From: a virus
DNA: 33,095 bases
Strand: one strand, 5' to 3'
IMG/VR virus record: IMGVR_UViG_3300024517_000067
Coordinates: 1 to 33,095 of that record
The notes below the pieces were generated by a model. That model did not search any database, was not told where the DNA came from, and saw nothing but the letters and a program-made list of their open reading frames with translations. Each line of letters begins with the position of its first letter. Within the stretch, counting starts at the first letter, position 1. The position numbers and the translations under genes are program-made. Shown here in pieces: positions 1,918 to 33,095 of the stretch.

Positions 1918-3236
1918 TGGGTTTGTTTAACAGGCGCTCTGCTGCGCCGAAGTCTGAGGCGCGCAGCTTTACGCTGGGCCAACTGGGTGCGCATGTGGCT
2001 GCCGCCGGCGGTTCTACCACTGTGACTGACTCAGACACTGCGCTGCATAACGGCGCCATCTGGGCGTGCATAGATGTGTTGGCAACTTCTGCGAGCCAAC
2101 TGCCGCTGCGTTCTGTCGTCAGAAGCGGTGCCGGCATACGGGTGCCAGTCGAGCCGGCGCCGCAACTGTTGCTGGAACCGTCTGCGCTGGTAGAGCCAGA
2201 TGTGTGGGTGTACCAAATCATGTTTGCATTGGGCACTGACGGCAACTGCTTTGGGCGTGTCGCTGGTGTGGACCGCACTGGGCGGCCCACTGGTATAGAG
2301 CTGTTGGACCCATCCACTGTGACTGGTCGCGGCGTGGTTAACGGTCGCGGCGTGGTGCGTGTCGCTGGCGGCGACCCAGAACAACTGTGGCCGCATGGCA
2401 GCATTTGGCATGTACCAGGAAAGATGATCCGCCCAGGCTCGCCGTTTGGTCTGTCGCCGCTGGTGTATGCCGGCAGAGCCACTGGCACTGGGCTCGCTGC
2501 CGAAGACTTCGGCTCAGACTTTTTTGGTGGTGGCGGTCACCCGTCAGCCATCATCTCTGCAACTGATGAGCTTACAGAGACACAAGCCAAAGCGATTAAG
2601 ACCGCATATCAGAAGGCGACTGGTTCTAGCACCAGCCGCGAGCCGGCAGTGTTCGGCGCTGGCCTCAAGTTTCAAGAGGTTCAGAGCAAACCAGTGGACA
2701 CACAGTTTCTGGATTTGATGCGATTCAACGTGGAGCAGATATGCCGTTTCTATCGTGTGCCGCCAACGATGGTGTACGGCGTGAGCTCTGGTCAGGCAGT
2801 CACATACCAGAACGCCAGCCAAGCAGATTTGGCGTATCTAAAGCACAGCCTGGACGGGTATCTGTCGCGGATAGAGGGCGCGCTGTCTGCTGTGCTGCCG
2901 GCTGGGCAGCAGGCGAAGTTCAATCGCGACGCACTTCTGCGTGCAGACACTGCCGGCAGATACGACGCTTATGCGGTCGCATTAGAGCATGGCATTTTGA
3001 CGTTGGACGAAGTGCGAGCACTGGAAGACAGACCGCCGCTAGACGCTGATGACGGCACCACAGCAGAAGCTGCACGCAGTCAGTCAGTCGCAGAAACCAT
3101 CCAAAAGGTTTATCTGGGTGTTGACAAAGTGCTGACCAGTGACGAAGCGTGGCTAGTCATTAACGATGTGGGCGGGGATCTGTCACTACCTGGTCCAGAC
3201 TTCACAGATGGGCAGCCACACGCTGGGCAGCAGTAG
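1917..3236 (+). CDS. Portal protein (HK97 family)
   Basis: A 439-residue portal subunit that forms the dodecameric DNA channel at the capsid vertex. Recognisable features are the N-terminal segment with HNGAIWACIDVLATSASQLP (about 41-60), which resembles the start of HK97-type portals, and the conserved stretch near residues 270-300 (FNVEQICRFYRVPPTMVYG). The C-terminal part is acidic and low in complexity. It sits between the small membrane protein and the protease, as expected. ATG 1917 overlaps the upstream TGA. Confidence 0.92.
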   Translation: MGLFNRRSAAPKSEARSFTLGQLGAHVAAAGGSTTVTDSDTALHNGAIWACIDVLATSASQLPLRSVVRSGAGIRVPVEPAPQLLLEPSALVEPDVWVYQIMFALGTDGNCFGRVAGVDRTGRPTGIELLDPSTVTGRGVVNGRGVVRVAGGDPEQLWPHGSIWHVPGKMIRPGSPFGLSPLVYAGRATGTGLAAEDFGSDFFGGGGHPSAIISATDELTETQAKAIKTAYQKATGSSTSREPAVFGAGLKFQEVQSKPVDTQFLDLMRFNVEQICRFYRVPPTMVYGVSSGQAVTYQNASQADLAYLKHSLDGYLSRIEGALSAVLPAGQQAKFNRDALLRADTAGRYDAYAVALEHGILTLDEVRALEDRPPLDADDGTTAEAARSQSVAETIQKVYLGVDKVLTSDEAWLVINDVGGDLSLPGPDFTDGQPHAGQQ

Positions 3237-3275
3237 CGGCCCATATTATTTGATGTCAGAAGGGACGATACCTGC

Positions 3276-4088
3276 ATGACGACAATCACGGCACCACCCA
3301 CAGAGAATGTCCTTAGGGCGTGGCATACGCCAGACGCTTTGGAATACCGCGCTGACAGCACACCAGAAGGTGGTGGCGTTGGCACGATGGCTGGACACTT
3401 CGCAGTGTTTAACCGTTGGACAGAAATAGATTCGACGTTTGAAGGCCAGTTTGTTGAGCGCATCGCTCCTGGTGCGTTCGCTGACACATTCCGCGATCAG
3501 GGCGAACGTATCCGCGTGTTGTATGACCACGGCTCAGACCCAGCCATTGGCAACAAACCGCTAGGCACGCCAGATGTGCTGGCAGAAGACGAGCGTGGTG
3601 CACGCTACGAAGTAGACCTGTTTGACACTGAGTATGTGCGTGAGCTGCTGCCGGCATTAAAGGCCGGCGCATTGGGTGCCAGTTTCAGGTTTCGTGTGAC
3701 AGACCAGGAGTGGGCAGAGACACCAGAGCCCAGTGACGACAATCCCAAAGGGCTACCAGAGCGCACCATCACTGGTGTGCATCTAATGGAGTTCGGCCCA
3801 GTTACGTTTCCCGCATACGCAGAAGCCACAGCAGGGCTGCGCTCCATGACAGACACATTTAACGATCACCTGCGCGACCCGCAATTTGTCGCACGCTTCA
3901 CAGAGCGTGTCGGTTTGGGTGTCGCAGAGAAAGTGCTTGCAACGCTGCCGCCCGACGGACGCAACGAAGCAGAGCACACCCAGGAACAGCCGCCCGACGG
4001 GCACAGCGATGGGGAACCACAACCCACAGGGGGCAGCCTGTTGGCTGTCGCCATGACAGACGTTGCACAGCGACGTTCTAGGAGCTGA
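3276..4088 (+). CDS. Prohead protease (HK97 family, peptidase S78/U35 type)
   Basis: A 270-residue serine protease that trims the capsid scaffold during maturation. The likely catalytic His85 is in VLYDHG and Ser136 is in GALGASFRFRV, both in the usual family context. The C-terminal 60 or so residues are Pro/Glu/Gln-rich and look like a disposable tail. AGAAGGGA lies just upstream of ATG 3276. The 39-base gap before it contains GCCCATATT, the same nine bases that begin the dyad near 31.9 kb, which may be chance. Confidence 0.9.
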   Translation: MTTITAPPTENVLRAWHTPDALEYRADSTPEGGGVGTMAGHFAVFNRWTEIDSTFEGQFVERIAPGAFADTFRDQGERIRVLYDHGSDPAIGNKPLGTPDVLAEDERGARYEVDLFDTEYVRELLPALKAGALGASFRFRVTDQEWAETPEPSDDNPKGLPERTITGVHLMEFGPVTFPAYAEATAGLRSMTDTFNDHLRDPQFVARFTERVGLGVAEKVLATLPPDGRNEAEHTQEQPPDGHSDGEPQPTGGSLLAVAMTDVAQRRSRS

Positions 4089-15596: not shown

Positions 15597-16298
15597 ATGG
15601 AGTTCGCGCCGGTCATAGATGTCATCACAGCGTTGGGTGTGATTGTCGCGTTGATGGTTGGTGTGCTCGCACTACTTCAGGCGCCGCCAATTAAACGGCT
15701 GTTGCACCGCACATTTCGCGATCCATTCCACAAGAGTGTGCGCGGTGCTGTGGATGACTCCAAATTGGCTACAGCGTTTGATGAACTAGACACATACACC
15801 CGCTATCACCTGGGCCCCAATGGGACAGCGCCAGCGCTGTTCTCTCGTGTTATGGCTGTGGAGTGGGCGAGTGAAAACCAGCAGGAAAAGCAGCGGCTGT
15901 TTCTAGACGAAGTGGACGCAGCAATCATGGAGGCCGACACAGACCAGCGCACCATCTTTGTGAATCGCCCATGCTGCGAGATATTCGGCGCAGAAGACTG
16001 GGAGCTGACAGGCCCCAACAGGTTTGATGAACCAGGACGCGGCTGGGAAAAGTTCATACACCCAGATGACCTGCCACAACTGAATGACAAATACGACGCA
16101 GCCCACACTGCCGGCGCTAAAGCAGAGTGGGAAGGCATTCGAGTCATCAACAGTGACGGCTCGCTGCGCTGCACATTTAACAGTGCCGCGTATCCAGTTA
16201 AAGCTGCCGATGGCCGCATGGTTGGATATATCGGTGTGTTAACAGTGGTCGAAGATTTTCGTGGTGATAAGACGCCACCCAAACAGGAGGACAGTTAA
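15597..16298 (+). CDS. Membrane-anchored PAS-domain protein in lysis region
   Basis: A 233-residue protein. Residues about 5-28 are a hydrophobic membrane segment (VITALGVIVALMVGVLALL), followed by a basic stretch. Residues about 105-222 form a PAS plus PAC domain: AIMEADTDQRTIFVN, the FIHPDDLPQLND motif, then WEGIRVINSDGSLRCTFNSAAYPVKAADGRMVGYIGVLTVV. No kinase, cyclase or HTH output domain follows; the protein ends with a charged tail. It immediately precedes the endolysin gene (ATG follows the TAA at once). PAS domains sense ligands, redox or light; here it may gate lysis or act as a holin-associated sensor, but this is inference. Confidence 0.8.
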   Translation: MEFAPVIDVITALGVIVALMVGVLALLQAPPIKRLLHRTFRDPFHKSVRGAVDDSKLATAFDELDTYTRYHLGPNGTAPALFSRVMAVEWASENQQEKQRLFLDEVDAAIMEADTDQRTIFVNRPCCEIFGAEDWELTGPNRFDEPGRGWEKFIHPDDLPQLNDKYDAAHTAGAKAEWEGIRVINSDGSLRCTFNSAAYPVKAADGRMVGYIGVLTVVEDFRGDKTPPKQEDS

Positions 16299-17921: not shown

Positions 17922-20906
17922 ATGGCAGATTACAATCCGAGCCAAGCTGCCAGTCATGGACACACTTATGGTGTTGGCTCGCAGTGGCGTGTGTCAGATA
18001 GCTGGGTGTGGTTTCGCTCGCACACAGCCAACAATTATCGGTCTGTTGCTGGGTTTCGTTTCGACATTCCAGACTCAGTGGACCCAGCGACAGTTACTGG
18101 CTGCACACTAAAGGTCAACGCGGCGAACGCCGGCAGCGGTTTTGAGACACTGATTACCGCTGTACCGCGAGCCACTGACTTCGCGAACACCAGCACCAAC
18201 AGACCAAATGATGTGTGGAGCACCACGCACGGCACTGTGGCATTCGATTCACTGTCTGGGCCAGCGGTAAACGATGAGTTTACGTCAGACGATTTTTCAT
18301 CTGTCATGGAGTCATGCCTGGACGCCACCACAGCATCTGGCGGCTACTACGAAATCGCGGTGCTGGTAGAAGCCACTGGCGCTGCCACCACATATGCAAA
18401 CCAGATTCAGGGCGATGTAACCAGCCCAACATATCCAATCGTGTTGTCTCTGGAGATAACAGCCGGCGCTGGTGTCACAACGACAGCGCCAGTGGTAACA
18501 CTCACTGTGCCGGCTGTGACTGTCGCCACCACATTCGATGCGGACGTTACGACCACAGCCGCATCAGTGACAGCTACTGCGCAGGCGTCTGGCTCTGGGC
18601 CATCCGCTGTGGTGACAGCAGCGCCGACAGTTTCTGCAACATGTGGGACAGTGCAAATATCGACAGACAATCTGGTGGCGAACGACTCCACTAACAGCAT
18701 CCACTGGCGCAGTTACACCATCTGGTGGCCGACAACAGCAGCACCCGCTGGTGGCCACCCTGTTGTGGCGTATGTCCATGGCGGACGCTGGCAAGCTGGT
18801 GGCCGCACACCCAGCAGCTCAGATGAAAACTATCTAGACCCGGACTGGCGTGACGCTTGCCTAGACGCTGGGCTGGCGGTCATGTCGATTGACTATCGTT
18901 TGACAGCGCAAGACGCGGTGCTGCAAACGCAGGTGCGGACCACGCAGCCGCTGCCGATTAAAGATGTGAAAACGGCGATCCTGCATTTGCAGAACGCTGC
19001 GAGCTCTGCCACCACTGGCGATGACACACTGCCGCTGAACGGCGAAACAATGGTTATCGCTGGTCACTCTGCTGGCGCCCATCTGGCGTTGTGGACTGTG
19101 GCGACCACAGACGACACAGCCGCCTATCTGACTGGCCGCGAAAACGCCGCGACTCTGGGCACATGGGGCGATGGCCGCAACGGCTACCAGGCCACCAGTT
19201 GGTCAGCCACATATCAGTACACATATGAGTACACGTTTGCTCCATGGGGTGACGGTGTGGTGGCGAGTGGCGGCACAGCACCAGACGACGCTAACAACAC
19301 CCACACAGAAATAACGCCGATGGCTGGAGCGTTTCTCTACGCACCCATCTGGGATATTTGGGGAGCACAAACATGGTCCTCTGATTCTGTGGTGGACACA
19401 GCGAACATTTGGGCTGTGCGAACCATCTACGGGCTGCACGCCAGCGCATTAGGTGGCGGCACTAATCCGCTGACAGTGGAAGGCCAACGCTACGAAGGTG
19501 ACATAGAAGACTACATACAAGCCACAGCCACAGAGACTGTCCCTGGCACATACGATTCCACGCACTACAACACGCGGCTATCCACCACTGCACGCACGCT
19601 GCCAGCGTTGGGTGTCGCATACTCAGATGACGACTTGCTGATAGGTCCAGTGGCTGGGTTCACACCCATGTCTGCGTTCTACACTGCGCAGGGCGCCGAC
19701 GTTGGCACCACACAAACGATGAGCTCTGCCGGCGAAGTGGTGCTATCCGCTGGCGAAGTAGAGAAGACTGGTTTGACTGCCATCAAACTGCCGTCTGGGA
19801 CAGACCACCCAGACGTTCTGTTTGATAGTTCACCAGCAGACTTTTTGACATGGCGCGCAGCGGTGCTTGCTACTGACGGCGCAGCTACGACTGTGGCGCC
19901 ACTGGTCGCTGTCACAGTGCCGGCACCAGCTATCAGCTACGACGCTGGCGTGACAGTTTCTGCTGCGTCTGTCACTGTCGCTGGTGGAGTCGCTGCCGGC
20001 GGTGTGCTGGTCAACGCCACTGCTGCGTCTGTGAGTGTCGCTCCTGGTGCGTCTGCTGGTAGCACCACAGGCGAGGAGACAGAGCCAGCATCAGTGTTGA
20101 CGACGTTCACACCTGGCGCCGCCACAGTGTCTGTGGACGCCATGACGACAACCACGGCGCCAGTGGCTTCTCTCACAGCCGGCACTGTCGGCATCACAGC
20201 AGACGCAGACCTGACGACCACAGCGCCATCAGCCACAGTCACCGTGCCGGCCGCAGTTGTTACTTACACTGGCGCAGCCACCACCACAGCAGCCGCTACC
20301 ACAGTCGGATGTGGGACAGCCACAGTAACTGTCGGCGCAGACATCACACTGACCGCCGCGGCTGTCACTCTGGCACCAGGAACGACCAGCACAGAAGTGT
20401 CTGGTGGCGCAACAGTCACAGCCATAGCGGTCAGTGTCGCTGCTGGAGTGTCCACTGGCACTGGCACTGGTTCAGCAGCAGCCGACGCTGTACCAGTCAC
20501 AGTGGGTGCCGGCACTGTCGCAATCACCACAACACGCGACGTAACGACCACAGCGCCAGCGGTCACAGTTGGTGCTGGCACAGTCACAGCTTCTGCTGGC
20601 GGCGACGTAGACGCCACAGCAGTGGCCACCACAGTCACTGTGCCAACTCCAGGCGTGCAAATCTCTGGTGGCAGCGAAGCCACACCAGCAGCCACAGTCC
20701 TATCCATCGGCGCTGGCACTGTCACCATCACTGTGGACGCCAATGTGGTGCTCGCAGCGGCTGTCCTGGTGGCACGCTGTGGCTCTGTTGGCGTGTCCAC
20801 TGGTGGAACTGCGCTACGCATCCGCAACACGAAACGCCGCCCAGATTACAGCCACACTGGTAGACGGCCAGATTGGTCACACACCCAACGAAGGGACTCC
20901 ACATAA
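17922..20906 (+). CDS. Large repeat protein with alpha/beta-hydrolase (esterase-like) domain
   Basis: A 994-residue modular protein, probably a tail spike or virion surface protein. Residues 1 to about 180 look like a beta-sandwich attachment/binding module. About 183-245 and 655-960 are Thr/Val/Ala/Gly-rich repeats of roughly 25 residues (variants of TTTAPAVTVGAGTV). Between them, residues about 255-645 form an alpha/beta-hydrolase: HGGRW at 286-290 (oxyanion hole), GHSAG at 381-385 (Ser383), an Asp cluster at 569-571 and His629, so a full triad is present. It may deacetylate or cut host surface glycans or lipids. The last 28 residues are basic, with RRPDYSHT/RRPDWSHT repeats. Confidence 0.82.
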   Translation: MADYNPSQAASHGHTYGVGSQWRVSDSWVWFRSHTANNYRSVAGFRFDIPDSVDPATVTGCTLKVNAANAGSGFETLITAVPRATDFANTSTNRPNDVWSTTHGTVAFDSLSGPAVNDEFTSDDFSSVMESCLDATTASGGYYEIAVLVEATGAATTYANQIQGDVTSPTYPIVLSLEITAGAGVTTTAPVVTLTVPAVTVATTFDADVTTTAASVTATAQASGSGPSAVVTAAPTVSATCGTVQISTDNLVANDSTNSIHWRSYTIWWPTTAAPAGGHPVVAYVHGGRWQAGGRTPSSSDENYLDPDWRDACLDAGLAVMSIDYRLTAQDAVLQTQVRTTQPLPIKDVKTAILHLQNAASSATTGDDTLPLNGETMVIAGHSAGAHLALWTVATTDDTAAYLTGRENAATLGTWGDGRNGYQATSWSATYQYTYEYTFAPWGDGVVASGGTAPDDANNTHTEITPMAGAFLYAPIWDIWGAQTWSSDSVVDTANIWAVRTIYGLHASALGGGTNPLTVEGQRYEGDIEDYIQATATETVPGTYDSTHYNTRLSTTARTLPALGVAYSDDDLLIGPVAGFTPMSAFYTAQGADVGTTQTMSSAGEVVLSAGEVEKTGLTAIKLPSGTDHPDVLFDSSPADFLTWRAAVLATDGAATTVAPLVAVTVPAPAISYDAGVTVSAASVTVAGGVAAGGVLVNATAASVSVAPGASAGSTTGEETEPASVLTTFTPGAATVSVDAMTTTTAPVASLTAGTVGITADADLTTTAPSATVTVPAAVVTYTGAATTTAAATTVGCGTATVTVGADITLTAAAVTLAPGTTSTEVSGGATVTAIAVSVAAGVSTGTGTGSAAADAVPVTVGAGTVAITTTRDVTTTAPAVTVGAGTVTASAGGDVDATAVATTVTVPTPGVQISGGSEATPAATVLSIGAGTVTITVDANVVLAAAVLVARCGSVGVSTGGTALRIRNTKRRPDYSHTGRRPDWSHTQRRDST

Positions 20907-22667: not shown

Positions 22668-23824
22668 TGACCGCAGCGCGTTACATCATTGGCGATGTCT
22701 TCGATGTTATGAGTGGGCTACCAGATAACAGCGTGGACCTGGTGCTGACATCTCCACCATTTCTGGCATTGCGTTCATATCTTCCAGACGACCACCCGAA
22801 CAAAGACAAAGAAATTGGCTCAGAAACGACGCCGGCAGAGTTTATTGACACGCTGCTAGCGCTGACCGCTGAGTGGGAACGGCTGCTGGCGCCGCACGGT
22901 TCTATCTGTGTGGAGTTGGGTGACACATACAGCAGCAGTGGTGGGATAACAGACACCCGCGACAGCACATCTGGCGGCAATGACTTAGCACCCAGAGCTG
23001 GGCGTGGTGGCGGCGAAGGCTGGCCGCTTGCTAAATCGTTGGCTGGCATTCCGCACCTTTACCATCTGTCACTGGCGTATGGTCGCAACATTCTCACTGG
23101 TGAACCGTCACCAGCCGGCATGTGGCGTGTGCGTAACGTGGTGGCATGGGTGCGACCCAACCCACCAGTGGGTGCGCTTGGCGATAAGTTCCGCCCAGCG
23201 ACCAGCTACCTAACCATCGCAGCCAAAGCATCAGACCGCTGGTTTGATCTGGACGCAGTGCGCGGCGAAATGCCGGCAGAACAGCACTCTGGTTTCATCC
23301 ACAAACCCAATGGGAGAACAGACCGTAACGACTGGGGCCGCGAACGCTCACCAGTCACTGCTGGACCGCCACCACTCGACTGGTGGCAGATAAACCCGAA
23401 GCCATACAAAGGTTCTCATTACGCCACATTCCCAGCAGAGCTGTGTCAGAAGCCGATCCAAACAATGTGTCCGCGTGAAGTGTGCGAACAGTGTGGCGAA
23501 CCGCGGCGCCGCATCTCAGAAGTGGAAGGTCTGGGCGGCGCCAACTTTCTAAAGGACCGCGACAGAGCCACAGGCCTGGTGGGTGCACGCAAACCCATGC
23601 CGACGATCACACGCACCACAACAGGGTGGACTGAGTGCGGATGCGACACACCCACATACCGCGCTGGCGTAGTTCTGGACCCATTCGCCGGCTCTGGCAC
23701 AGCGCTCGCAGTCGCAACAGGTTACGGCCGTGACGCCATCGGCATAGACGTAGACGAACGCAACGCAGACTTAGCAGCAGAGCGTGTTGGCATGTTTCTC
23801 ACCACAGAACAGGCGCCAGCGTGA
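22667..23824 (+). CDS. DNA methyltransferase (beta class, N4-cytosine or N6-adenine)
   Basis: A 385-residue amino-methyltransferase. Motif IV (TSPPF, residues 28-32) comes before motif I (LDPFAGSGT, 337-345), the beta-class order; the TSPP form is more usual for N4-cytosine enzymes. An inserted Cys pattern (CPREVCEQCGEPRRR and ECGCD) may bind zinc. No restriction enzyme lies next to it, so it is an orphan that may protect phage DNA from host restriction or mark it for packaging. ATG 22667 overlaps the lipoprotein stop. Confidence 0.9.
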   Translation: MTAARYIIGDVFDVMSGLPDNSVDLVLTSPPFLALRSYLPDDHPNKDKEIGSETTPAEFIDTLLALTAEWERLLAPHGSICVELGDTYSSSGGITDTRDSTSGGNDLAPRAGRGGGEGWPLAKSLAGIPHLYHLSLAYGRNILTGEPSPAGMWRVRNVVAWVRPNPPVGALGDKFRPATSYLTIAAKASDRWFDLDAVRGEMPAEQHSGFIHKPNGRTDRNDWGRERSPVTAGPPPLDWWQINPKPYKGSHYATFPAELCQKPIQTMCPREVCEQCGEPRRRISEVEGLGGANFLKDRDRATGLVGARKPMPTITRTTTGWTECGCDTPTYRAGVVLDPFAGSGTALAVATGYGRDAIGIDVDERNADLAAERVGMFLTTEQAPA

Positions 23825-23862
23825 GCTCAGAAGACTGGCGGCTGCAAGCACTGTGCCGCGGC
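23803..23862 (+). repeat. Tandem-duplication arm A (start of WhiB-like gene 1)
   Basis: This 60-base segment, from CACAGAACAGG to CTGTGCCGCGGC, recurs at 24093-24149 with two or so substitutions and a 3-base deletion (one codon). It spans the end of the methyltransferase gene and the first codons of the first WhiB-like gene. Confidence 0.8.
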
Positions 23863-24114
23863 GAAGACACTGACGCATACTTCTCACGCAGCCGCGGCAA
23901 CCAATCCACGAAGGTGGCAGCCATGTGCGCCGCATGTCCAGTGATCCAGCCATGTCGCACACATGGCATCGCATTCGAGTTCTACGGCGTGTGGGGTGGC
24001 ATGACTGTCACTGCACGCAAAGCTGAACGCCGGCGGCTAGGCATCACACTCGAAACACCTGGCGAACACTTTGACTGGGGTGGCTCGCTGCCCACAGAAC
24101 AGGTGCCAGCATGA
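23821..24114 (+). CDS. WhiB-family iron-sulfur regulator 1
   Basis: A 97-residue WhiB-like protein with the four cluster-binding cysteines Cys12, Cys36, Cys39 and Cys45 (CxxC then C after five) and the turn motif GVWGG at 56-60. A basic stretch RKAERRRLG (about 66-74) follows, as expected for DNA contact. WhiB proteins bind a 4Fe-4S cluster and the sigma factor to redirect transcription. GTG 23821 overlaps the methyltransferase stop. Phage WhiB proteins are known to antagonise host WhiB2 in mycobacteria; the target here is not known. Confidence 0.93.
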   Translation: MSSEDWRLQALCRGEDTDAYFSRSRGNQSTKVAAMCAACPVIQPCRTHGIAFEFYGVWGGMTVTARKAERRRLGITLETPGEHFDWGGSLPTEQVPA

Positions 24115-24149
24115 GCTCAGACTGGCGGCTGCAAGCACTGTGCCGCGGC
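24093..24149 (+). repeat. Tandem-duplication arm B (start of WhiB-like gene 2)
   Basis: Near-identical copy of 23803-23862, covering the end of the first WhiB-like gene (TEQVPA, matching TEQAPA at the end of the methyltransferase) and the start of the second. The offset of about 290 bases equals one WhiB-like gene, pointing to a tandem duplication with a junction inside this repeat. Confidence 0.8.
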
Positions 24150-24422
24150 ACTGTCACAGAGATGTACTACCCGACTGGGCACAGCCACCACGCCAACCAG
24201 GTTCTCGCACTCTGCCGAACATGCCCAGTGATAGAACCGTGCCGCGAACACGGCGTAACCCATGAGCTCTACGGCGTCTGGGGTGGCACCACAGGCCACC
24301 AACGCAAACAGGAACGACGCAGGCGTGGCATCACACTCGCCACACCAGGACAGACACCAGCCACCCACCACCCAGAAAGAACAGACATGCCCAACCCACC
24401 AGCCACCCCAGTCACACTATGA
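24111..24422 (+). CDS. WhiB-family iron-sulfur regulator 2
   Basis: A 103-residue paralogue of the preceding protein with Cys11, Cys35, Cys38 and Cys44, GVWGG at 55-59, and KQERRRRG. The first 13 residues are nearly identical to regulator 1 in protein and DNA, but the middle has diverged strongly (YYPTGHSHHANQ in place of YFSRSRGNQST). The Pro/Thr/His-rich tail after about residue 75 is unlike regulator 1. ATG 24111 overlaps the upstream stop. A CAGAAAGA motif near 24373 precedes an internal in-frame ATG but opens only 11 codons. Confidence 0.92.
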   Translation: MSSDWRLQALCRGTVTEMYYPTGHSHHANQVLALCRTCPVIEPCREHGVTHELYGVWGGTTGHQRKQERRRRGITLATPGQTPATHHPERTDMPNPPATPVTL

Positions 24423-24649
24423 ACTGGGCAGCGTTCGCACTAGCAGCAGCCGCTGTTGTTGTCGCATGGTCCCGCGGTTACGACGCCGGCCGCAGACAAG
24501 CATGGCACCACGCCAGACAGATGATGGCAGCAGAAGGACGGCTACCACTCTGGGGTGACCAACGCACCGCTGGCAGCAGAGCCACAAAACGCGGTTCAGA
24601 GCGTGCACGACGCAACCACCCAGCCGGCCGCGGCGAACATTGGCAGTGA
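24419..24649 (+). CDS. Small membrane protein with basic tail
   Basis: A 76-residue protein with one N-terminal membrane segment (WAAFALAAAAVVVAW) followed by a very basic, polar tail rich in Arg, Gly and His. It starts by ATGA overlap with the second WhiB-like gene and its stop directly abuts the third. Its role is unknown; the tail could bind nucleic acid or a membrane protein partner. It separates the WhiB-like genes. Confidence 0.62.
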   Translation: MNWAAFALAAAAVVVAWSRGYDAGRRQAWHHARQMMAAEGRLPLWGDQRTAGSRATKRGSERARRNHPAGRGEHWQ

Positions 24650-25021
24650 ATGCGCCCAGACCTGAAATGGCAGACAGAAGCAGCTTGCAGAGGCATGGAG
24701 ACAGCGCTTTTCTTTCCAGCTCCAGGGCAGATAGTCCCAGCCGAAGTGACAGCAGTGTGCGCCACATGCCCAGTGCGCGCACAATGCTCCACACACGCAG
24801 TCCGATTTGGCGAGTACGGCTATTGGGGTGGCTCCAGCTCGCAGCAGCGCAGACGGGTGCGCAGCCGGCACACCATCACAGCCACACGGCTGACAGTGCA
24901 GACAGCGATCACCAACCCAGACTTATCCACCAAACCAGCCGAAGTGCGCAGACGCGCCAACAGGCGCCGCAACGCAGAGCAAACAGACAGACGCCAAAAC
25001 GGCGACAGCGAAACACGGTGA
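24650..25021 (+). CDS. WhiB-family iron-sulfur regulator 3
   Basis: A 123-residue protein with Cys13, Cys37, Cys40 and Cys46 and the turn GYWGG (57-61). It is clearly more diverged from regulators 1 and 2 than they are from each other. The tail (about 65-123) is long and strongly basic (RRRVRSRH, RRRANRRRN), which may bind DNA or RNA. ATG 24650 directly follows the previous stop. Retention of all four cysteines argues that it still carries a cluster. Confidence 0.9.
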   Translation: MRPDLKWQTEAACRGMETALFFPAPGQIVPAEVTAVCATCPVRAQCSTHAVRFGEYGYWGGSSSQQRRRVRSRHTITATRLTVQTAITNPDLSTKPAEVRRRANRRRNAEQTDRRQNGDSETR

Positions 25022-27880: not shown

Positions 27881-29905
27881 GTGACTGCGCCCATGCCCAA
27901 CCACATCACACCATCGGCGGCAGCGTTGCAATACGCTGCCGCCGGCTGGCGTGTCATACCCATCAAACCTGGCGCCAAATATCCGCAACTCCCGAAGTGG
28001 CAGAAAGTGGCGACCACAGACCACGCAGTAATCACAGCATGGTACGCAGGCCTATACCGCGGGCACGGCGTTGGCATCGCCACAGGCGCAGAGTCTGGCG
28101 TGTTCGCTTTAGACGTAGACGACATGGCAGTGCTCGCAGAACTAGAAGCACAACATGGCACACTGCCAGACACAGCCACAACGGTCACAGGCAGTGGTGG
28201 ACGCCACCACCTATTCATCTACCCGACAGACGGCAGAGAAGTCACCAACGCCAACCAGCTCCCAGCCGGCATAGATGTCCGCGGTGACGGCGGTCAGATA
28301 GTAGCGCCACCCACCATCCACCCAAACGGCACACCATACGAATGGCTGAACGACTCCAGAACACCATGCGCAGCGCCAGAGTGGCTGCTGGAGCTCACAC
28401 AAGAACCACCCCGCCCAATACCATTGGCACCAGATAGGACAGCTCTAAACGCCACACACGGCGTGTCGTCTGTAGATGAGTGGTCACAAGCCACAGACTG
28501 GGCCGAACTACTAGGCGCCGACGGCTGGCAATACCATCACAGCGACCGCACTGGCGAACGCTACTGGACGCGACCAGGTAAGCCACTCAGAGAAGGACCG
28601 TCAGCCACCACAGAACACAAAGGCGACGGCGGTCTAAAAGTGTTCACCAGCTCACTGGCACACTGGGGACTCACAGAAGGTGAGTCATATTCTAAACACG
28701 GCTATCTGGCCACAGTGCACCACTCAGGCGACTACAAAGCAGCAGCAGCAGAACTGCGTGCAGACGGATGGGGTGCACAGCAGACAGCCACACAGAGCTC
28801 CACACAGCCAGCCACACCAGCCGGCACTGCACCACACCCAGACAGCGGCGAAGACATAGAGCTGCGCCAGCCATGGCCCATCACAAATCTGGCGGCAGTC
28901 ATCGCAGACGGCTGGCACCCACCAACACCCACCATGCTGCAACGCACAGACGGCATGGCACTCATATACCCAGGCCGATACAACACACTCAGCGGTGAAC
29001 CTGGTTGCGGCAAAACGTGGGTGGCGCTCTGGTGCATCGCAGAACAAATCAGCGCCGGCCACAACGTTGCAGTGGTCGATTACGAAGACACACCAGGAGC
29101 GCTAATAAATCGCCTCACGCTGCTGGGTGTGACCACAGACGACATCGCCAACCATGTCACATATATAGACCCAGCGGCGCCCATCACAAACCGTGGTGCC
29201 ATCACAGACGCCGGCGAACAGGCGTTGCACCAGCTCGCAGACATCACAGACTTGGCGCTGGTTGTTATTGACTCAGTGGGCGAGTCGCTCGCGGCAGAAG
29301 CATTCTCACCCAACGACGATGACGATGTAGCGAGATGGGTGCGCCACCTGCCACGCTCCATCGCACACAACACAGGCGCCGCAGTGTTCGGCCTAGACCA
29401 TGTGACCAAATCGTTAGAGACACGCGGCCAGTGGGCGATAGGCAGCCAACGCAAACTGGCAGCAGTAGACGGCGCCGCGTACACAATCACAGCCGGCATA
29501 GCACCCACCAAAACAGAAGACGGCCGGCTGACTGTACGCACAGCCAAAGACCGCCACGGCACCCACCAGCGCACCCACATAGCCGCAGAGATAGAAGTAA
29601 ACAACACACTCACAGGCGCAGTCGCAGTCCTAGTGAAACCACCAGAAGACCCGACAGTGACAGGGCACAGCATCTACCAGCAGCGCATCATGCAAGCAGT
29701 AGAAGACAACGGCGGCGACATCAGTGGCAAAGAGATGGTCACAGACGTAGACGGCAAAGCCGACCACATACGCGTTGCGCGTGACGAGCTGATTGCCAAC
29801 GGGCAACTGATAAGGCGACAACGATCAGGTAAAGGTGGCGGCTGGCTGTACTCCATGCCGGCACCACTGTCATATGATCCCAACCAGAAAGACACCAACC
29901 AATGA
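27881..29905 (+). CDS. Primase-polymerase/helicase fusion (Prim-Pol plus RepA-like ATPase)
   Basis: A 674-residue replication protein. Residues about 10-170 are a bifunctional Prim-Pol domain (ALDVDD near 76-81, GSGGRHH at 104-110, and IDVRGDGGQIVAPPTIHPNG at 131-150). About 190-300 is a linker domain with WQYHHSDRTGERYW. About 330-590 is a RecA-type ATPase with Walker A GEPGCGKT (372-379), DYED (400-403) and Walker B LVVIDS (460-465). The last 70 residues look like a winged helix. It can prime and unwind at the origin near 31.9 kb. GTG 27881 or ATG 27893 may start it. Confidence 0.88.
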   Translation: MTAPMPNHITPSAAALQYAAAGWRVIPIKPGAKYPQLPKWQKVATTDHAVITAWYAGLYRGHGVGIATGAESGVFALDVDDMAVLAELEAQHGTLPDTATTVTGSGGRHHLFIYPTDGREVTNANQLPAGIDVRGDGGQIVAPPTIHPNGTPYEWLNDSRTPCAAPEWLLELTQEPPRPIPLAPDRTALNATHGVSSVDEWSQATDWAELLGADGWQYHHSDRTGERYWTRPGKPLREGPSATTEHKGDGGLKVFTSSLAHWGLTEGESYSKHGYLATVHHSGDYKAAAAELRADGWGAQQTATQSSTQPATPAGTAPHPDSGEDIELRQPWPITNLAAVIADGWHPPTPTMLQRTDGMALIYPGRYNTLSGEPGCGKTWVALWCIAEQISAGHNVAVVDYEDTPGALINRLTLLGVTTDDIANHVTYIDPAAPITNRGAITDAGEQALHQLADITDLALVVIDSVGESLAAEAFSPNDDDDVARWVRHLPRSIAHNTGAAVFGLDHVTKSLETRGQWAIGSQRKLAAVDGAAYTITAGIAPTKTEDGRLTVRTAKDRHGTHQRTHIAAEIEVNNTLTGAVAVLVKPPEDPTVTGHSIYQQRIMQAVEDNGGDISGKEMVTDVDGKADHIRVARDELIANGQLIRRQRSGKGGGWLYSMPAPLSYDPNQKDTNQ

Positions 29906-30735: not shown

Positions 30736-30740
30736 CCATG
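30688..30740 (+). repeat. Direct repeat copy 2 (ribosome site of the GH16-like gene)
   Basis: A 53-base copy of 30487-30538. It contains AGAAAG (30722-30727) ten bases before ATG 30738. One extra base and one substitution near 30712-30714 distinguish it. The two copies are 201-202 bases apart. Confidence 0.85.
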
Positions 30741-31751
30741 GACGCAGAAACAGAAGCCGAACATCTAGCAGCCATCAGCAGAGCCATCGCAGAATACGGT
30801 GACAGCCTCGTGGCAGACGCATACGAATACGCAGACAACAGAGAAACAGATGTGCTCAGAGTCATAGAGAACCTGGTGGTTGATGAGGCACGCATCAGAA
30901 CAGACCAGATACTCGCACTCACAAACCGCATCAACGACCTGCAAGCAATCGTCACAGACAGACTGCTAACCACCCAACTACTAACAGCAGCCACACTCAC
31001 ACCCACCAGCGAGCTCTGGACCGCATACGGCCCAGGCGTCAACGAAACCTACGGCAGCGGCAACAACAGCCACCACCGCCACGACCCACAAATGGTGCAA
31101 TGGGGACACAACACAGCCACACTCCTCGCAGCCAAAGTAGACGGCGAATACCTATCTGGCGCCATCTCCACCAGAGAAGCACCCAACGGCACAGGCTTCT
31201 ACGGAATACCCGCAGACGCATACGGCATCAACTTCTGGTTTGACCTCGAGCTCTCCGACTACAACCACGCAGTCTGGCCATCAGTGTGGCTGCGCGGCGA
31301 AGGTGGCAGCAGTGAATCAGAGATAGATGTCATGGAGGGATTTTTTGCACAAGTGCTGCCAGAACACATCACACAAACACTCCACCACCACGGCAGCAAA
31401 GCCGGCAAGTCATGGCCCCATCCAGCAGTCCCAATGCGCTTCTCAGTCGCAGCACTCATCACCAAAGAACCAGCCGGCGGTCTACGCATCAGACTCAGCT
31501 ACGCAGCACCAGGCGACGACCACACAGCCACAGTGGACCAGACCGTGGACCTGCCACAGGACTACACATGGGACATCATCGCCCAGCAACAGATAGGTGG
31601 TAACTGGGTGGGCGACCCAACGAAACCATACACAGGGCTACTCCAGAACGGGCAGCCTGGTGTGCACCCCAATGCCATCACAGAGTGGGACGGTTCAGTG
31701 TCCACACTCACGCTCCACAACATTGGTGTGGCAGTAGTAAACGCCAGCTAA
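30738..31751 (+). CDS. GH16-like glycoside hydrolase with helical N-terminus
   Basis: A 337-residue protein. Residues 1 to about 80 are helical and coiled-coil-like (ARIRTDQILALTNRINDLQA). Residues about 90-337 resemble family 16 glucanases: AVWPSVWLRGEGGSSESEIDVMEGF has the E-x-D-x-x-E core (Glu195 nucleophile, Asp197, Glu200 acid/base), and GINFWFDLELSDYN precedes it as a sandwich strand. Such enzymes cut beta-1,3, beta-1,4 or galactan-type polysaccharides; the substrate is not evident. There is no signal peptide. It could be a virion depolymerase with a coiled-coil stalk placed outside the tail operon, or an enzyme released at lysis. Confidence 0.8.
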   Translation: MDAETEAEHLAAISRAIAEYGDSLVADAYEYADNRETDVLRVIENLVVDEARIRTDQILALTNRINDLQAIVTDRLLTTQLLTAATLTPTSELWTAYGPGVNETYGSGNNSHHRHDPQMVQWGHNTATLLAAKVDGEYLSGAISTREAPNGTGFYGIPADAYGINFWFDLELSDYNHAVWPSVWLRGEGGSSESEIDVMEGFFAQVLPEHITQTLHHHGSKAGKSWPHPAVPMRFSVAALITKEPAGGLRIRLSYAAPGDDHTATVDQTVDLPQDYTWDIIAQQQIGGNWVGDPTKPYTGLLQNGQPGVHPNAITEWDGSVSTLTLHNIGVAVVNAS

Positions 31752-31760
31752 TGCCAGACA

Positions 31761-31796
31761 GTTATCCACAGGGTTATCCACAGGGTTATCCACAGG
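31761..31796 (+). repeat. DnaA-box array 1 (three boxes)
   Basis: TTATCCACA, the consensus DnaA box, occurs at 31762-31770, 31774-31782 and 31786-31794, all in one orientation with a 12-bp period (unit GTTATCCACAGG). Confidence 0.9.
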
Positions 31797-31830
31797 AACA
31801 TGGACCCAAACACTTGACAGGCCATGATAA

Positions 31831-31865
31831 GGTGGTCCCGCAGTCTTCAAGACGCAGGGACCACC
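31831..31865. repeat. 35-bp imperfect palindrome in origin
   Basis: Outer arms GGTGGTCCC (31831-31839) and GGGACCACC (31857-31865) are perfectly complementary. Inside, GTCTT-C-AAGAC forms a second stem, separated from the first by 3-base mismatched patches. The outer arm contains the GGGACCA iteron core in both orientations, so it may bind the same protein as a dimer. Confidence 0.7.
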
Positions 31866-31882
31866 ATTACATCTGGTGGCGC

Positions 31883-32012
31883 GGGACCACGTTGGAGCCC
31901 ATATTCTATATGGCGGGACCATGTTGGGACCATGTTGGGACCATGTTGGACCATGTTAGGGCTAAATCGCCCACAACCCATACCCACCATGGGATTCAGG
32001 CGGGACCATGTT
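31883..32012 (+). repeat. 11-bp iterons GGGACCATGTT
   Basis: Perfect copies start at 31915, 31926, 31937 and 32002. Variants start at 31883 (C for T) and 31948 (first G missing). The three central copies are contiguous with an 11-bp period, about one DNA turn, so a bound protein would line up on one face. Confidence 0.85.
31896..31915. promoter_or_regulatory. AT-rich dyad element, copy 2 (inside origin)
   Basis: Exact reverse complement of 32-51. The dyad core is CCATATTCTATATGG. It abuts the first perfect iteron. It could be the unwinding element, an operator or both. Confidence 0.65.
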
Positions 32013-32050
32013 AGGCAATCGGCGCACCACCCAGCCACCCAACCCACAAA

Positions 32051-32086
32051 GTTATCCACAGGGTTATCCACAGGGTTATCCACAGG
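32051..32086 (+). repeat. DnaA-box array 2 (three boxes)
   Basis: TTATCCACA occurs at 32052-32060, 32064-32072 and 32076-32084, in the same orientation and with the same 12-bp period as array 1, from which it is offset by 290 bases. Confidence 0.9.
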
Positions 32087-32096
32087 GCCGGCAGCC

Positions 32097-32621
32097 ATGA
32101 CAAATCACCGCACCAAAGTCATGGTCGTCATCGGCCCAGGCCGAAGCTGCACCAGCGGAGTAGCCAGAGCACTGCACCACTCAGGCTGGTCGATGGGCCC
32201 CAGTCTGCTACCAGCTCACGAGTCAAACAGATGGGGCTTCTACGAAGACAGAGCACTGGTCAAACTGAATGACAGATATCTGCAAGACGCTGCACCATTC
32301 AGCGACTGGCTGCACCCAACCACACCCACACCCAACGGCGCCAACGTCGCGGCAGCACACAACTACATCACCGCACGCAGCCACCTAGCAGACGCAGGCC
32401 AGTGGGGAATGAAAGACCCACGACTGTCCATCACATGGCCCATCTGGGCGGCAGCATTCCAACGACGACCAGAGCTCGAGGTCATCATGGTCTACTCATC
32501 AAGAACAGACACAGCCATAGCCGACAGCCTCGCCGCACGCGACGGCATACCGCACGCCGACGCACTCGACTGGGCGCACACATACCGTGACGCAGCACTG
32601 ACCCACATGGCCGGCAGATGA
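32097..32621 (+). CDS. Sulfotransferase-like protein
   Basis: A 174-residue protein resembling PAPS-dependent sulfotransferases. VVIGPGRSCTSGVARALHHSG (residues 10-30) matches the 5'-phosphosulfate loop after the first strand, and WGMKDPRLS (103-111) matches the segment that contacts the 3'-phosphate. FYEDRALVKLND lies between them. It is shorter than most (about 250 residues), so the fold may be minimal. ATG 32097 follows the origin; an upstream in-frame extension would run through the iterons and DnaA boxes. It may sulfate a glycan on the virion or host surface. Confidence 0.75.
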   Translation: MTNHRTKVMVVIGPGRSCTSGVARALHHSGWSMGPSLLPAHESNRWGFYEDRALVKLNDRYLQDAAPFSDWLHPTTPTPNGANVAAAHNYITARSHLADAGQWGMKDPRLSITWPIWAAAFQRRPELEVIMVYSSRTDTAIADSLAARDGIPHADALDWAHTYRDAALTHMAGR

Positions 32622-32699
32622 CCACCACCCACCACCACCAGGTGGGCACCCACCCCCCACACACCCACCACCCCACCCACCACCCACACAGGTGACGCC
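32622..32699 (+). terminator. C/A-rich tract, possible Rho-dependent terminator
   Basis: The 78 bases between the sulfotransferase and HNH genes are extremely C-rich and G-poor (34 C, 9 G in 32641-32700), with repeated CACC. CCCACC (32628-32633) can pair with GGTGGG (32641-32646). Untranslated C-rich, G-poor RNA is the typical loading site for Rho. Confidence 0.4.
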
Positions 32700-32984
32700 A
32701 TGTCAACCAGTCCACTATCCCACCCACGCTGGCGACGATGGCGCCAGCACTGGATCGCCACACACCCCCACCCCCACTGCCACATCTGCCACCAACTGGT
32801 GGACATGAACCTGCGCTGGCCACACGCAGACTCACTGACACTGGACCACCTGCACCCCATCGCAGATGGCGGCGCCATCTACGACCCAGCCAACGTGGCA
32901 GCAGCACACAAGCACTGCAACGAACGCAAAGGCAGCAGCACCACACACACAAGCAGCGCAGCACCAGCGAGCAGACAGTGGTGA
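32700..32984 (+). CDS. HNH endonuclease
   Basis: A 94-residue HNH nuclease. CHIC (Cys27, Cys30) with a second pair near Cys73 forms the zinc site. LDHLHPIADGG (Asp49-His50), Asn65 and HKHCNERKG (70-78) supply the HNH catalytic motif. Phages of this type often place an HNH gene beside the terminase genes, where it is needed for cutting at packaging. If the window closes into a circle, the small terminase gene follows about 240 bases later. AGGTG precedes ATG 32700. Confidence 0.9.
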   Translation: MSTSPLSHPRWRRWRQHWIATHPHPHCHICHQLVDMNLRWPHADSLTLDHLHPIADGGAIYDPANVAAAHKHCNERKGSSTTHTSSAAPASRQW

Positions 32985-33022
32985 CCCACCCGCAAGCCAT
33001 ACCCACCCCATGCAATAACAGA

Positions 33023-33034
33023 CGGCCGCGGCCG
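33023..33034. other. 12-bp GC palindrome in end region
   Basis: CGGCCGCGGCCG is a perfect 12-bp palindrome between the HNH gene and the window end. With positions 1-131 it belongs to the non-coding stretch where a packaging (cos or pac) site would be expected. The role is unproven. Confidence 0.35.
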
Positions 33035-33036
33035 AA

Positions 33037-33067
33037 CGCGAAACGCTCGCGACTCCCAGAATTTTTT
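33037..33067 (+). terminator. Hairpin with T6 tract after the HNH gene
   Basis: CGCGA (33037-33041) pairs with TCGCG (33047-33051) around a 5-base loop; TTTTTT follows at 33062-33067. The 10-base gap between stem and T-tract is long, so it is a moderate intrinsic-terminator candidate. Confidence 0.45.
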
Positions 33068-33077
33068 AGTCACGCAG

Positions 33078-33093
33078 CGTGGTCGCCACCACG
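33078..33093 (+). other. Terminal hairpin at window end
   Basis: CGTGGT (33078-33083) and ACCACG (33088-33093) form a 6-bp stem with a CGCC loop, two bases before the window end. If the map is circular, TTCTTTATAT follows, so this may be a second terminator or part of a packaging site. Confidence 0.4.
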
Positions 33094-33095
33094 AG

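What the first reader, a model, noticed from the sequence alone, without database searches (positions are those of the whole stretch)
31752..32096. Iteron-type replication origin with two arrays of perfect DnaA boxes in a small virulent phage
Six exact TTATCCACA boxes in two groups of three, all in one orientation with 12-bp period, bracket iterons, a long palindrome and an AT-rich dyad. Clear DnaA-box arrays are known in bacterial chromosomes and in plasmid or plasmid-like phage origins, but here there is no integrase, repressor or partition system. This suggests a lytic phage that recruits host DnaA.
Basis: partly seen in the sequence, partly recalled or inferred. Interest (0 to 1): 0.88.

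Follow-up and report, generated by a model that had tools for sequence, protein, structure and literature searches.

The report
Phage replication origin borrowing host DnaA
A small environmental phage carries, in its largest gene-free stretch, two sets of three perfect binding sites for the bacterial replication starter DnaA, spaced as DnaA needs them, most likely so that the host's own starter protein opens the phage's replication origin; similar arrays turn out to be common in many unrelated phages.

Summary
Six exact TTATCCACA boxes, the only exact ones in the window, form two same-strand triplets with a 12-bp period at both ends of the largest non-coding gap (31752-32096). They bracket about six iteron-like GGGACCATGTT repeats, a near-perfect hairpin and a short dyad. 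There is no strongly AT-rich unwinding element. I read it as a DnaA-binding replication origin; no experiment shows this. Support: (i) in 2.9 million viral contigs three boxes at 12-bp period occur at least 119 times (scan truncated), at 13 bp 3 times, reversed 0 times, and boxes cluster at 11-12, 21-23 and 32-34 bp, matching the 2-3 bp gap E. coli DnaA requires; (ii) the window's exact 35-mer occurs 6 times in 84,980 prokaryote genomes, 4 of them beside dnaA and/or dnaN (oriC); (iii) in other phages such arrays lie inside lambda-O-like initiator genes or beside helicase genes. Against: capsid relatives lack the arrays (0 of 50), no Rep or initiator gene was found, the GC-skew switch lies about 1 kb away at the probable packaging end, and T7-like phages carry similar boxes at their terminal-repeat junction. 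The idea that arrays are confined to plasmid-like phages is wrong.

The parts
31752..32096 (.). Largest non-coding gap of the genome; proposed replication origin region
   Evidence: Gap between ORF 30738-31751 and ORF 32097-32621; largest of all gaps
31762..31794 (+). Left DnaA-box triplet: TTATCCACA at 31762-31770, 31774-31782, 31786-31794 (12-bp period, GGG spacers)
   Evidence: Exact matches
32052..32084 (+). Right DnaA-box triplet: TTATCCACA at 32052-32060, 32064-32072, 32076-32084, ending 12 bp before the ATG at 32097
   Evidence: Exact matches; 36-bp core identical to left triplet
31883..32014 (+). Iteron-like direct repeats GGGACCATGTTGG: 31883-31895, 31915-31927, 31926-31938, 31937-31949, 31947-31959, 32002-32014
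   Evidence: 0-2 mismatches; binding protein unknown
31797..31807 (-). Inverted partial iteron AACATGGACCC next to the left triplet
   Evidence: Inverted repeats I2, I3, I6-I8
31831..31865 (.). Near-perfect palindrome/hairpin GGTGGTCCC...GGGACCACC whose arms carry the iteron core GGGACCA
   Evidence: Inverted repeat I1; forms in predicted MFE and centroid structures; no T-run, not called a terminator
31896..31915 (.). 20-bp AGCCCATATTCTATATGGCG containing dyad CCATATTCTATATGG (31899-31913); repeated exactly, inverted, at 32-51
27881..29905 (+). PrimPol + AAA/RecA-type (DnaB/KaiC-like) primase-helicase, the only clear replication-fork gene found
   Evidence: PF09250 3e-43, PF13481 3e-14; PHROG 1156, 695
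30738..31751 (+). Unknown gene directly upstream of the left triplet
   Evidence: No PHROG or Pfam match; no convincing PDB match
32097..32621 (+). Unknown gene directly downstream of the right triplet
   Evidence: ORF frame; no PHROG, Pfam or PDB match
32700..32984 (+). HNH endonuclease; with terS/terL across the contig ends it suggests a cos-type end near 33095/1
   Evidence: PF01844 6e-8, PHROG 338; cos inferred from gene order

Best explanation
The 31752-32096 gap is most likely the phage's replication origin, or an essential half of it. Host DnaA binds the two helically phased, same-oriented triplets, as it does at chromosomal oriC. The two DnaA clusters bring or bend the intervening DNA together, much as the two DnaA-box arrays of plasmid/phage P1 oriR do around its iterons. 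A phage DNA-binding protein, still unidentified, occupies the GGGACCATGTT iterons and hairpin. The opened site is handed to a replicative helicase (host DnaB or the phage PrimPol-helicase), and the host replisome, since no phage polymerase other than PrimPol was found, copies the genome. Shown: box sequence, spacing and arrangement, iterons, hairpin, oriC location of the identical array in bacteria, and location of such arrays in phage initiator genes. Inferred: DnaA binding in this phage's host, opening, helicase hand-over, and that replication starts here.
For: Six exact boxes, two triplets. In IMG/VR at least 119 stretches have three boxes at 12-bp period, scan truncated; reversed pattern 0; 13-bp period 3 in a complete scan. 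Among box triples found with free gaps, neighbour spacing is 11-12 bp in 102 loci, 10 or 13 bp in 3, 21-23 bp in 69 and 32-34 bp in 38. E. coli DnaA binds pairs of boxes 2 or 3 bp apart, and one extra bp largely abolishes binding (PMC11317965). The window's exact 35-mer occurs 6 times in 84,980 genomes, 4 of them next to dnaA and/or dnaN. In about 16 of the 119 array loci the array lies inside a lambda-O/DnaD-like initiator gene. When that gene family was retrieved by protein, all 17 loci covering the linker had 1-3 perfect boxes, all 12 bp apart where more than one. 36 of 213 array loci have a second cluster 30-450 bp away, nearly always in the same orientation. In another PrimPol phage three boxes lie within a few bp of the end of the PrimPol gene. 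P1 oriR has two DnaA-box arrays with iterons (PMC4980987). Fourfold-site GC skew is about -0.42 in 30-33 kb and +0.28 in 1-3 kb.
Against: No AT-rich unwinding element in the gap. No Rep, O-like or DnaD-like gene found in the window. None of 50 capsid relatives has two boxes within 31 bp. The skew switch lies between HNH and terS, about 1 kb right of the arrays; the genes on both sides of the arrays have the same negative skew. T7-like phages, known to replicate without DnaA (own knowledge), carry similar clusters at the terminal-repeat junction, so box arrays need not mean an origin. After collapsing homologues the association of arrays with replication genes is present but not overwhelming.
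Confidence: 0.64

Rival explanations
1. DnaA sink: the arrays titrate host DnaA, as datA-type sites do, to stop new rounds of host chromosome replication; phage replication starts elsewhere.
For: Arrays with DnaA spacing also sit at the terminal-repeat junction of T7-like phages, which do not need DnaA (own knowledge). Perfect consensus boxes are high-affinity sites. The unit copy number changes easily.
Against: Arrays lie inside initiator genes in many phages, where a mere sink has no reason to be. In bacteria the same 35-mer sits at oriC. Six boxes per genome is a weak sink early in infection. Iterons and hairpin between the triplets are unexplained.
Confidence: 0.13
2. Packaging or concatemer-junction repeats: the two direct arrays bracket a terminal-repeat or cos region, like SRL/SRR short repeats around the T7 terminal repeat.
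For: Arrays lie about 1 kb from the probable genome end. Named phages have box clusters at the terminus: Arthrobacter Seahorse and Tiff81 50-90 bp from the right end beside HNH, Microbacterium Phinky and Phabia about 300 bp from the left end, T7-like phages between gp19 and gene 0.3.
Against: HNH, terS and terL and the contig ends put the packaging site near 33095/1, not inside 31797-32051. No terminal repeat was found in the contig. The strict 2-3 bp gap rule is a DnaA property, not one of terminase.
Confidence: 0.1
3. Transcription control: DnaA bound just upstream of ORF 32097 acts as activator or repressor, coupling the downstream genes to host DnaA.
For: The right triplet ends 12 bp before the ATG at 32097. 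DnaA is a transcription factor at paired boxes (PMC11317965).
Against: No promoter-like site found in 31500-33095. It does not explain the left triplet, iterons and hairpin.
Confidence: 0.08

Closest known systems
Plasmid replicon of phage P1 (oriR)
   Same: Two DnaA-box arrays with iterons, in a phage genome (PMC4980987)
   Different: P1 has an adjacent RepA gene, an AT-rich unwinding region and partition genes; here no Rep or par gene and no AT-rich region was found, and the iterons differ in sequence and length (own knowledge of P1)
Bacterial oriC (dnaA-dnaN intergenic DnaA-box cluster)
   Same: The identical 35-bp tandem box array occurs at oriC of several bacteria
   Different: No dnaA or dnaN and no AT-rich unwinding element; phage iterons in between
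Lambda-type ori inside an O-like initiator gene
   Same: In other phages DnaA-box arrays sit in the linker of O-like/DnaD-like initiator genes
   Different: Here the array is intergenic and no O-like gene is present; lambda's own iterons bind O, not DnaA (own knowledge)
T7 short-repeat arrays SRL/SRR
   Same: Direct arrays near a genome end; T7-like phages carry DnaA-box-like units there
   Different: HK97-type TerL (PHROG 9), HNH beside the putative cos, no terminal repeat in the contig

Membership tests
DnaA-binding array (oriC type) | Consensus boxes TTATCCACA, same orientation, 2-3 bp apart | tested here: met
   Six exact boxes, 3-bp gaps; spacing rule from PMC11317965 and viral survey
DnaA-binding array (oriC type) | Binding by the host DnaA | not testable with these tools
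   Needs footprint or ChIP; host unknown
Bacterial oriC-type origin | AT-rich unwinding element next to the boxes | tested here: not met
   At most 52% AT in the 50-bp windows sampled; least stable 100 bp is the left array itself, 98.8th percentile
Iteron plasmid / P1-type origin | Direct-repeat iterons between or beside DnaA boxes | tested here: met
   Six GGGACCATGTT-type repeats plus inverted copies between the triplets
Iteron plasmid / P1-type origin | Adjacent Rep (winged-helix) initiator gene | tested here: not met
   No Rep or initiator family in the PHROG and Pfam scans of predicted window proteins; several proteins remain unknown
Iteron plasmid / P1-type origin | Autonomous replication of the cloned region | not testable with these tools
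   Bench test
T7-type concatemer junction | Terminal repeat bracketed by the arrays, T7-like terminase | tested here: not met
   TerL is PHROG 9; no terminal repeat in the contig; virion ends not mapped
Plasmid-like (P1/N15-type) temperate phage | Partition genes, repressor or integrase | tested here: not met
   No PF00589 or PF01656 match; none in scans; absence in one contig is not proof

The most novel reading that the evidence does not exclude
Recruiting host DnaA through oriC-like box arrays is a general, largely overlooked way in which unrelated phages, including apparently virulent ones, start replication. In this phage the array is coupled to phage iterons and a PrimPol-helicase instead of a Rep or O protein, giving a hybrid origin: host opener, phage primase-helicase.
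Probability: 0.38. Interest if true: 0.75.

Novelty: new variant of a known kind. Interest (0 to 1): 0.57.

Why it matters
Textbook phages mostly bring their own initiator and bypass DnaA; P1's plasmid origin is the usual exception. The survey here suggests that DnaA-box arrays obeying the DnaA dimer spacing are common in phages and often sit in or near replication genes. If so, many phages would be tied to the host's DnaA supply and its cell-cycle control. That would be directly testable, would help predict origins in uncultured phages, and could explain some host-range limits.

Tried and rejected
PrimPol as query in viral contigs: no relatives; an alignment of distant PrimPols was not conserved enough to search. 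Iteron pair as pattern in viral contigs: 0 hits. blastn of the region against named phages: none. A PHROG near/far comparison of genes around arrays, with each homologous cluster counted once, gave only modest enrichment of initiator families near arrays (3 members for one replication-initiation family and 2 for several others near, none among the top 25 far), so I do not claim that most arrays sit at replication genes. Some arrays inside ORFs are probably coding repeats rather than origins, e.g. the membrane-protein family L012/L022/L033/L090 and L019. Rfam: only a chance-level hit. Promoter/terminator scan: nothing. Literature: no survey of DnaA-box arrays across phages found in the held library; isolated reports of predicted DnaA boxes exist (PMC11512268).

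Full report
1. What is there. The window is a single virus record of 33,095 bp. The main genes read on the + strand, in the order of an HK97-type siphophage: terL 346-1767, portal 1917, prohead protease 3276, major head protein 4094, tail genes, amidase 16299, DNA methyltransferase 22604, three WhiB-like genes 23821-25021, exonuclease 25374, PrimPol-helicase 27881-29905, HNH 32700-32984. The largest non-coding gap is 31752-32096. It begins and ends with a triplet of exact TTATCCACA boxes, all on the + strand with 12-bp period. Shuffling the gap never gives more than one exact box. Between the triplets lie six GGGACCATGTT-type repeats, mostly 10-11 bp apart, inverted copies of the same core, a near-perfect hairpin whose arms also carry that core, and a 15-bp dyad. 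An AT-rich unwinding region is missing.

2. Are these DnaA sites? The reversed pattern gives 0. The same boxes at 13-bp period give 3 in a complete scan. When the gaps are left free, neighbouring boxes are 11-12 bp apart in 102 loci, 10 or 13 bp in 3, 21-23 bp in 69 and 32-34 bp in 38. E. coli DnaA binds box pairs separated by 2 or 3 bp, and one additional bp strongly lowers binding (PMC11317965). The viral arrays follow this rule, and the window's 3-bp gaps fit it.

3. Where do such arrays occur? The window's exact 35-mer was found 6 times in one genome for each of 84,980 species. At four of these, DnaA and/or DnaN lie next to it: L348 (DnaN), L349, L352 and L353 (both). So the same string is used at chromosomal oriC. 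In viral contigs the array lies inside an ORF in many cases; eight tested representatives match PHROG replication-initiation, O-like or DnaD-like families, standing for about 16 of 119 loci. There the boxes encode a VDNSVDKSVDN linker between an N-terminal winged-helix-like part and the C-terminal part, the place where lambda's ori lies in gene O (own knowledge of lambda). Retrieving this gene by protein rather than by box pattern, all 17 loci that include the linker have one, two or three perfect boxes, 12 bp apart where more than one. In a family of 12 intergenic arrays the fourth and fifth boxes, which the search pattern did not require, are invariant, while the gap before the last box varies between 2 and 3 bp. 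Eleven loci have a helicase of PHROG 256 within 3.5 kb, the closest 57 bp away. Two clusters 30-450 bp apart occur in 36 of 213 loci, nearly always in the same orientation.

4. Named phages. A 36-nt array query finds 28 records among 50,697 phages, but only 4 (Xanthomonas) among 72,556 plasmids at the same E-value limit. Arthrobacter phages Seahorse and Tiff81 have boxes 49-92 bp from the right end beside HNH; Microbacterium phages Phinky and Phabia have them about 300 bp from the left end. T7-like Escherichia and Klebsiella phages have them between terL (gp19) and the early region, at the terminal-repeat junction. This last group is the best argument for a rival reading, since T7 replication does not need DnaA (own knowledge).

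5. The window's own relatives. 80 loci with a related major head protein were found, 40-66% identical. Of 50 whole records searched, none has two boxes within 31 bp. The closest, L261 (terL 46%, portal 49%), has no detectable PrimPol homologue; it carries one perfect box inside another gene that I suspect is an initiator, L325:7398-8102 (not confirmed by a family search). So the array is not inherited with the head module. Whether it is inherited with the replication module cannot be said, because no close PrimPol relative was found. In a more distant PrimPol record (L161) three boxes lie within a few bp of the end of the PrimPol gene. In L214 two same-strand clusters of 5 and 3 boxes lie 169 bp apart about 2 kb from a PrimPol-related gene.

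6. Skew. Cumulative GC skew has its minimum at the contig ends and its maximum at 17.8-20 kb, also at third and fourfold codon positions. The switch is between HNH and terS; genes on both sides of the arrays share a negative sign. This agrees with an origin in the neighbourhood, but it also agrees with a gene-module or genome-end effect, so I count it as weak.

7. Mechanism. Most likely host DnaA assembles on both triplets, a phage protein occupies the iterons and hairpin, and the opened site is handed to a helicase, with the host replisome doing the synthesis (no phage polymerase other than PrimPol was seen). The P1 oriR layout, two DnaA-box arrays with iterons (PMC4980987), is the nearest described analogue. 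Steps shown: sequence, spacing, arrangement, comparison. Steps inferred: binding, opening, hand-over, start site. Confidence 0.64.

8. Novelty. DnaA-box origins are known in plasmids and P1, so the kind is known. What differs is the setting: no Rep, integrase or partition gene found, and a PrimPol-helicase. What appears under-described is the wide occurrence of DnaA-spaced arrays in phages; I found no such survey in the open-access library, which does not hold most subscription papers.

Noticed in passing
window 31896-31915 and 32-51: 20-bp AGCCCATATTCTATATGGCG, containing a perfect dyad, occurs twice in inverted orientation: in the origin gap and just upstream of terS. It looks like an operator or a site flanking the genome end.
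   Followed up: partly
L234:2951-4272, L235:4880-5060, L237:4942-5067 (T7-like phages): T7-like Klebsiella and Escherichia phages carry clusters of DnaA-box-like units, 11-12 bp apart in the Escherichia ones, in the short-repeat region beside the terminal repeat, although T7 is thought not to need DnaA.
   Followed up: partly
L330-L346, initiator gene linker: The DnaA-box unit in a phage initiator gene varies between 1, 2 and 3 copies among close relatives with no damaged copy; the protein linker grows in step as VDNS/VDKS repeats.
   Followed up: yes
L019:1-594: A gene made of 12-nt units NIVD/NIRA/NIGA, mixing GTTATCCACAAT with GTTAGCCCGAAT; probably a coding repeat that resembles DnaA boxes.
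   Followed up: no
L351 (Nitrospira MAG contig), about 2947-3514: Seventeen exact DnaA boxes within about 570 bp, with a RusA gene nearby; probably a prophage or plasmid origin.
   Followed up: no
window 23821-25021: WhiB-like genes at 23821, 24111 and 24650, pointing to an actinobacterial host.
   Followed up: no
window 15597-16298 and 17922-20906: Among the tail/lysis genes, one protein with a PAS domain and one with an alpha/beta-hydrolase (BD-FAE) domain were matched in the group scan; the assignment to these ORFs is my reading of their sequences.
   Followed up: no
window 33000-33095 and 1-50: Contig ends lie between HNH and terS, and the closest relative L261 also begins just upstream of terS and terL, so both contigs may end at the natural cos site.
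   Followed up: partly
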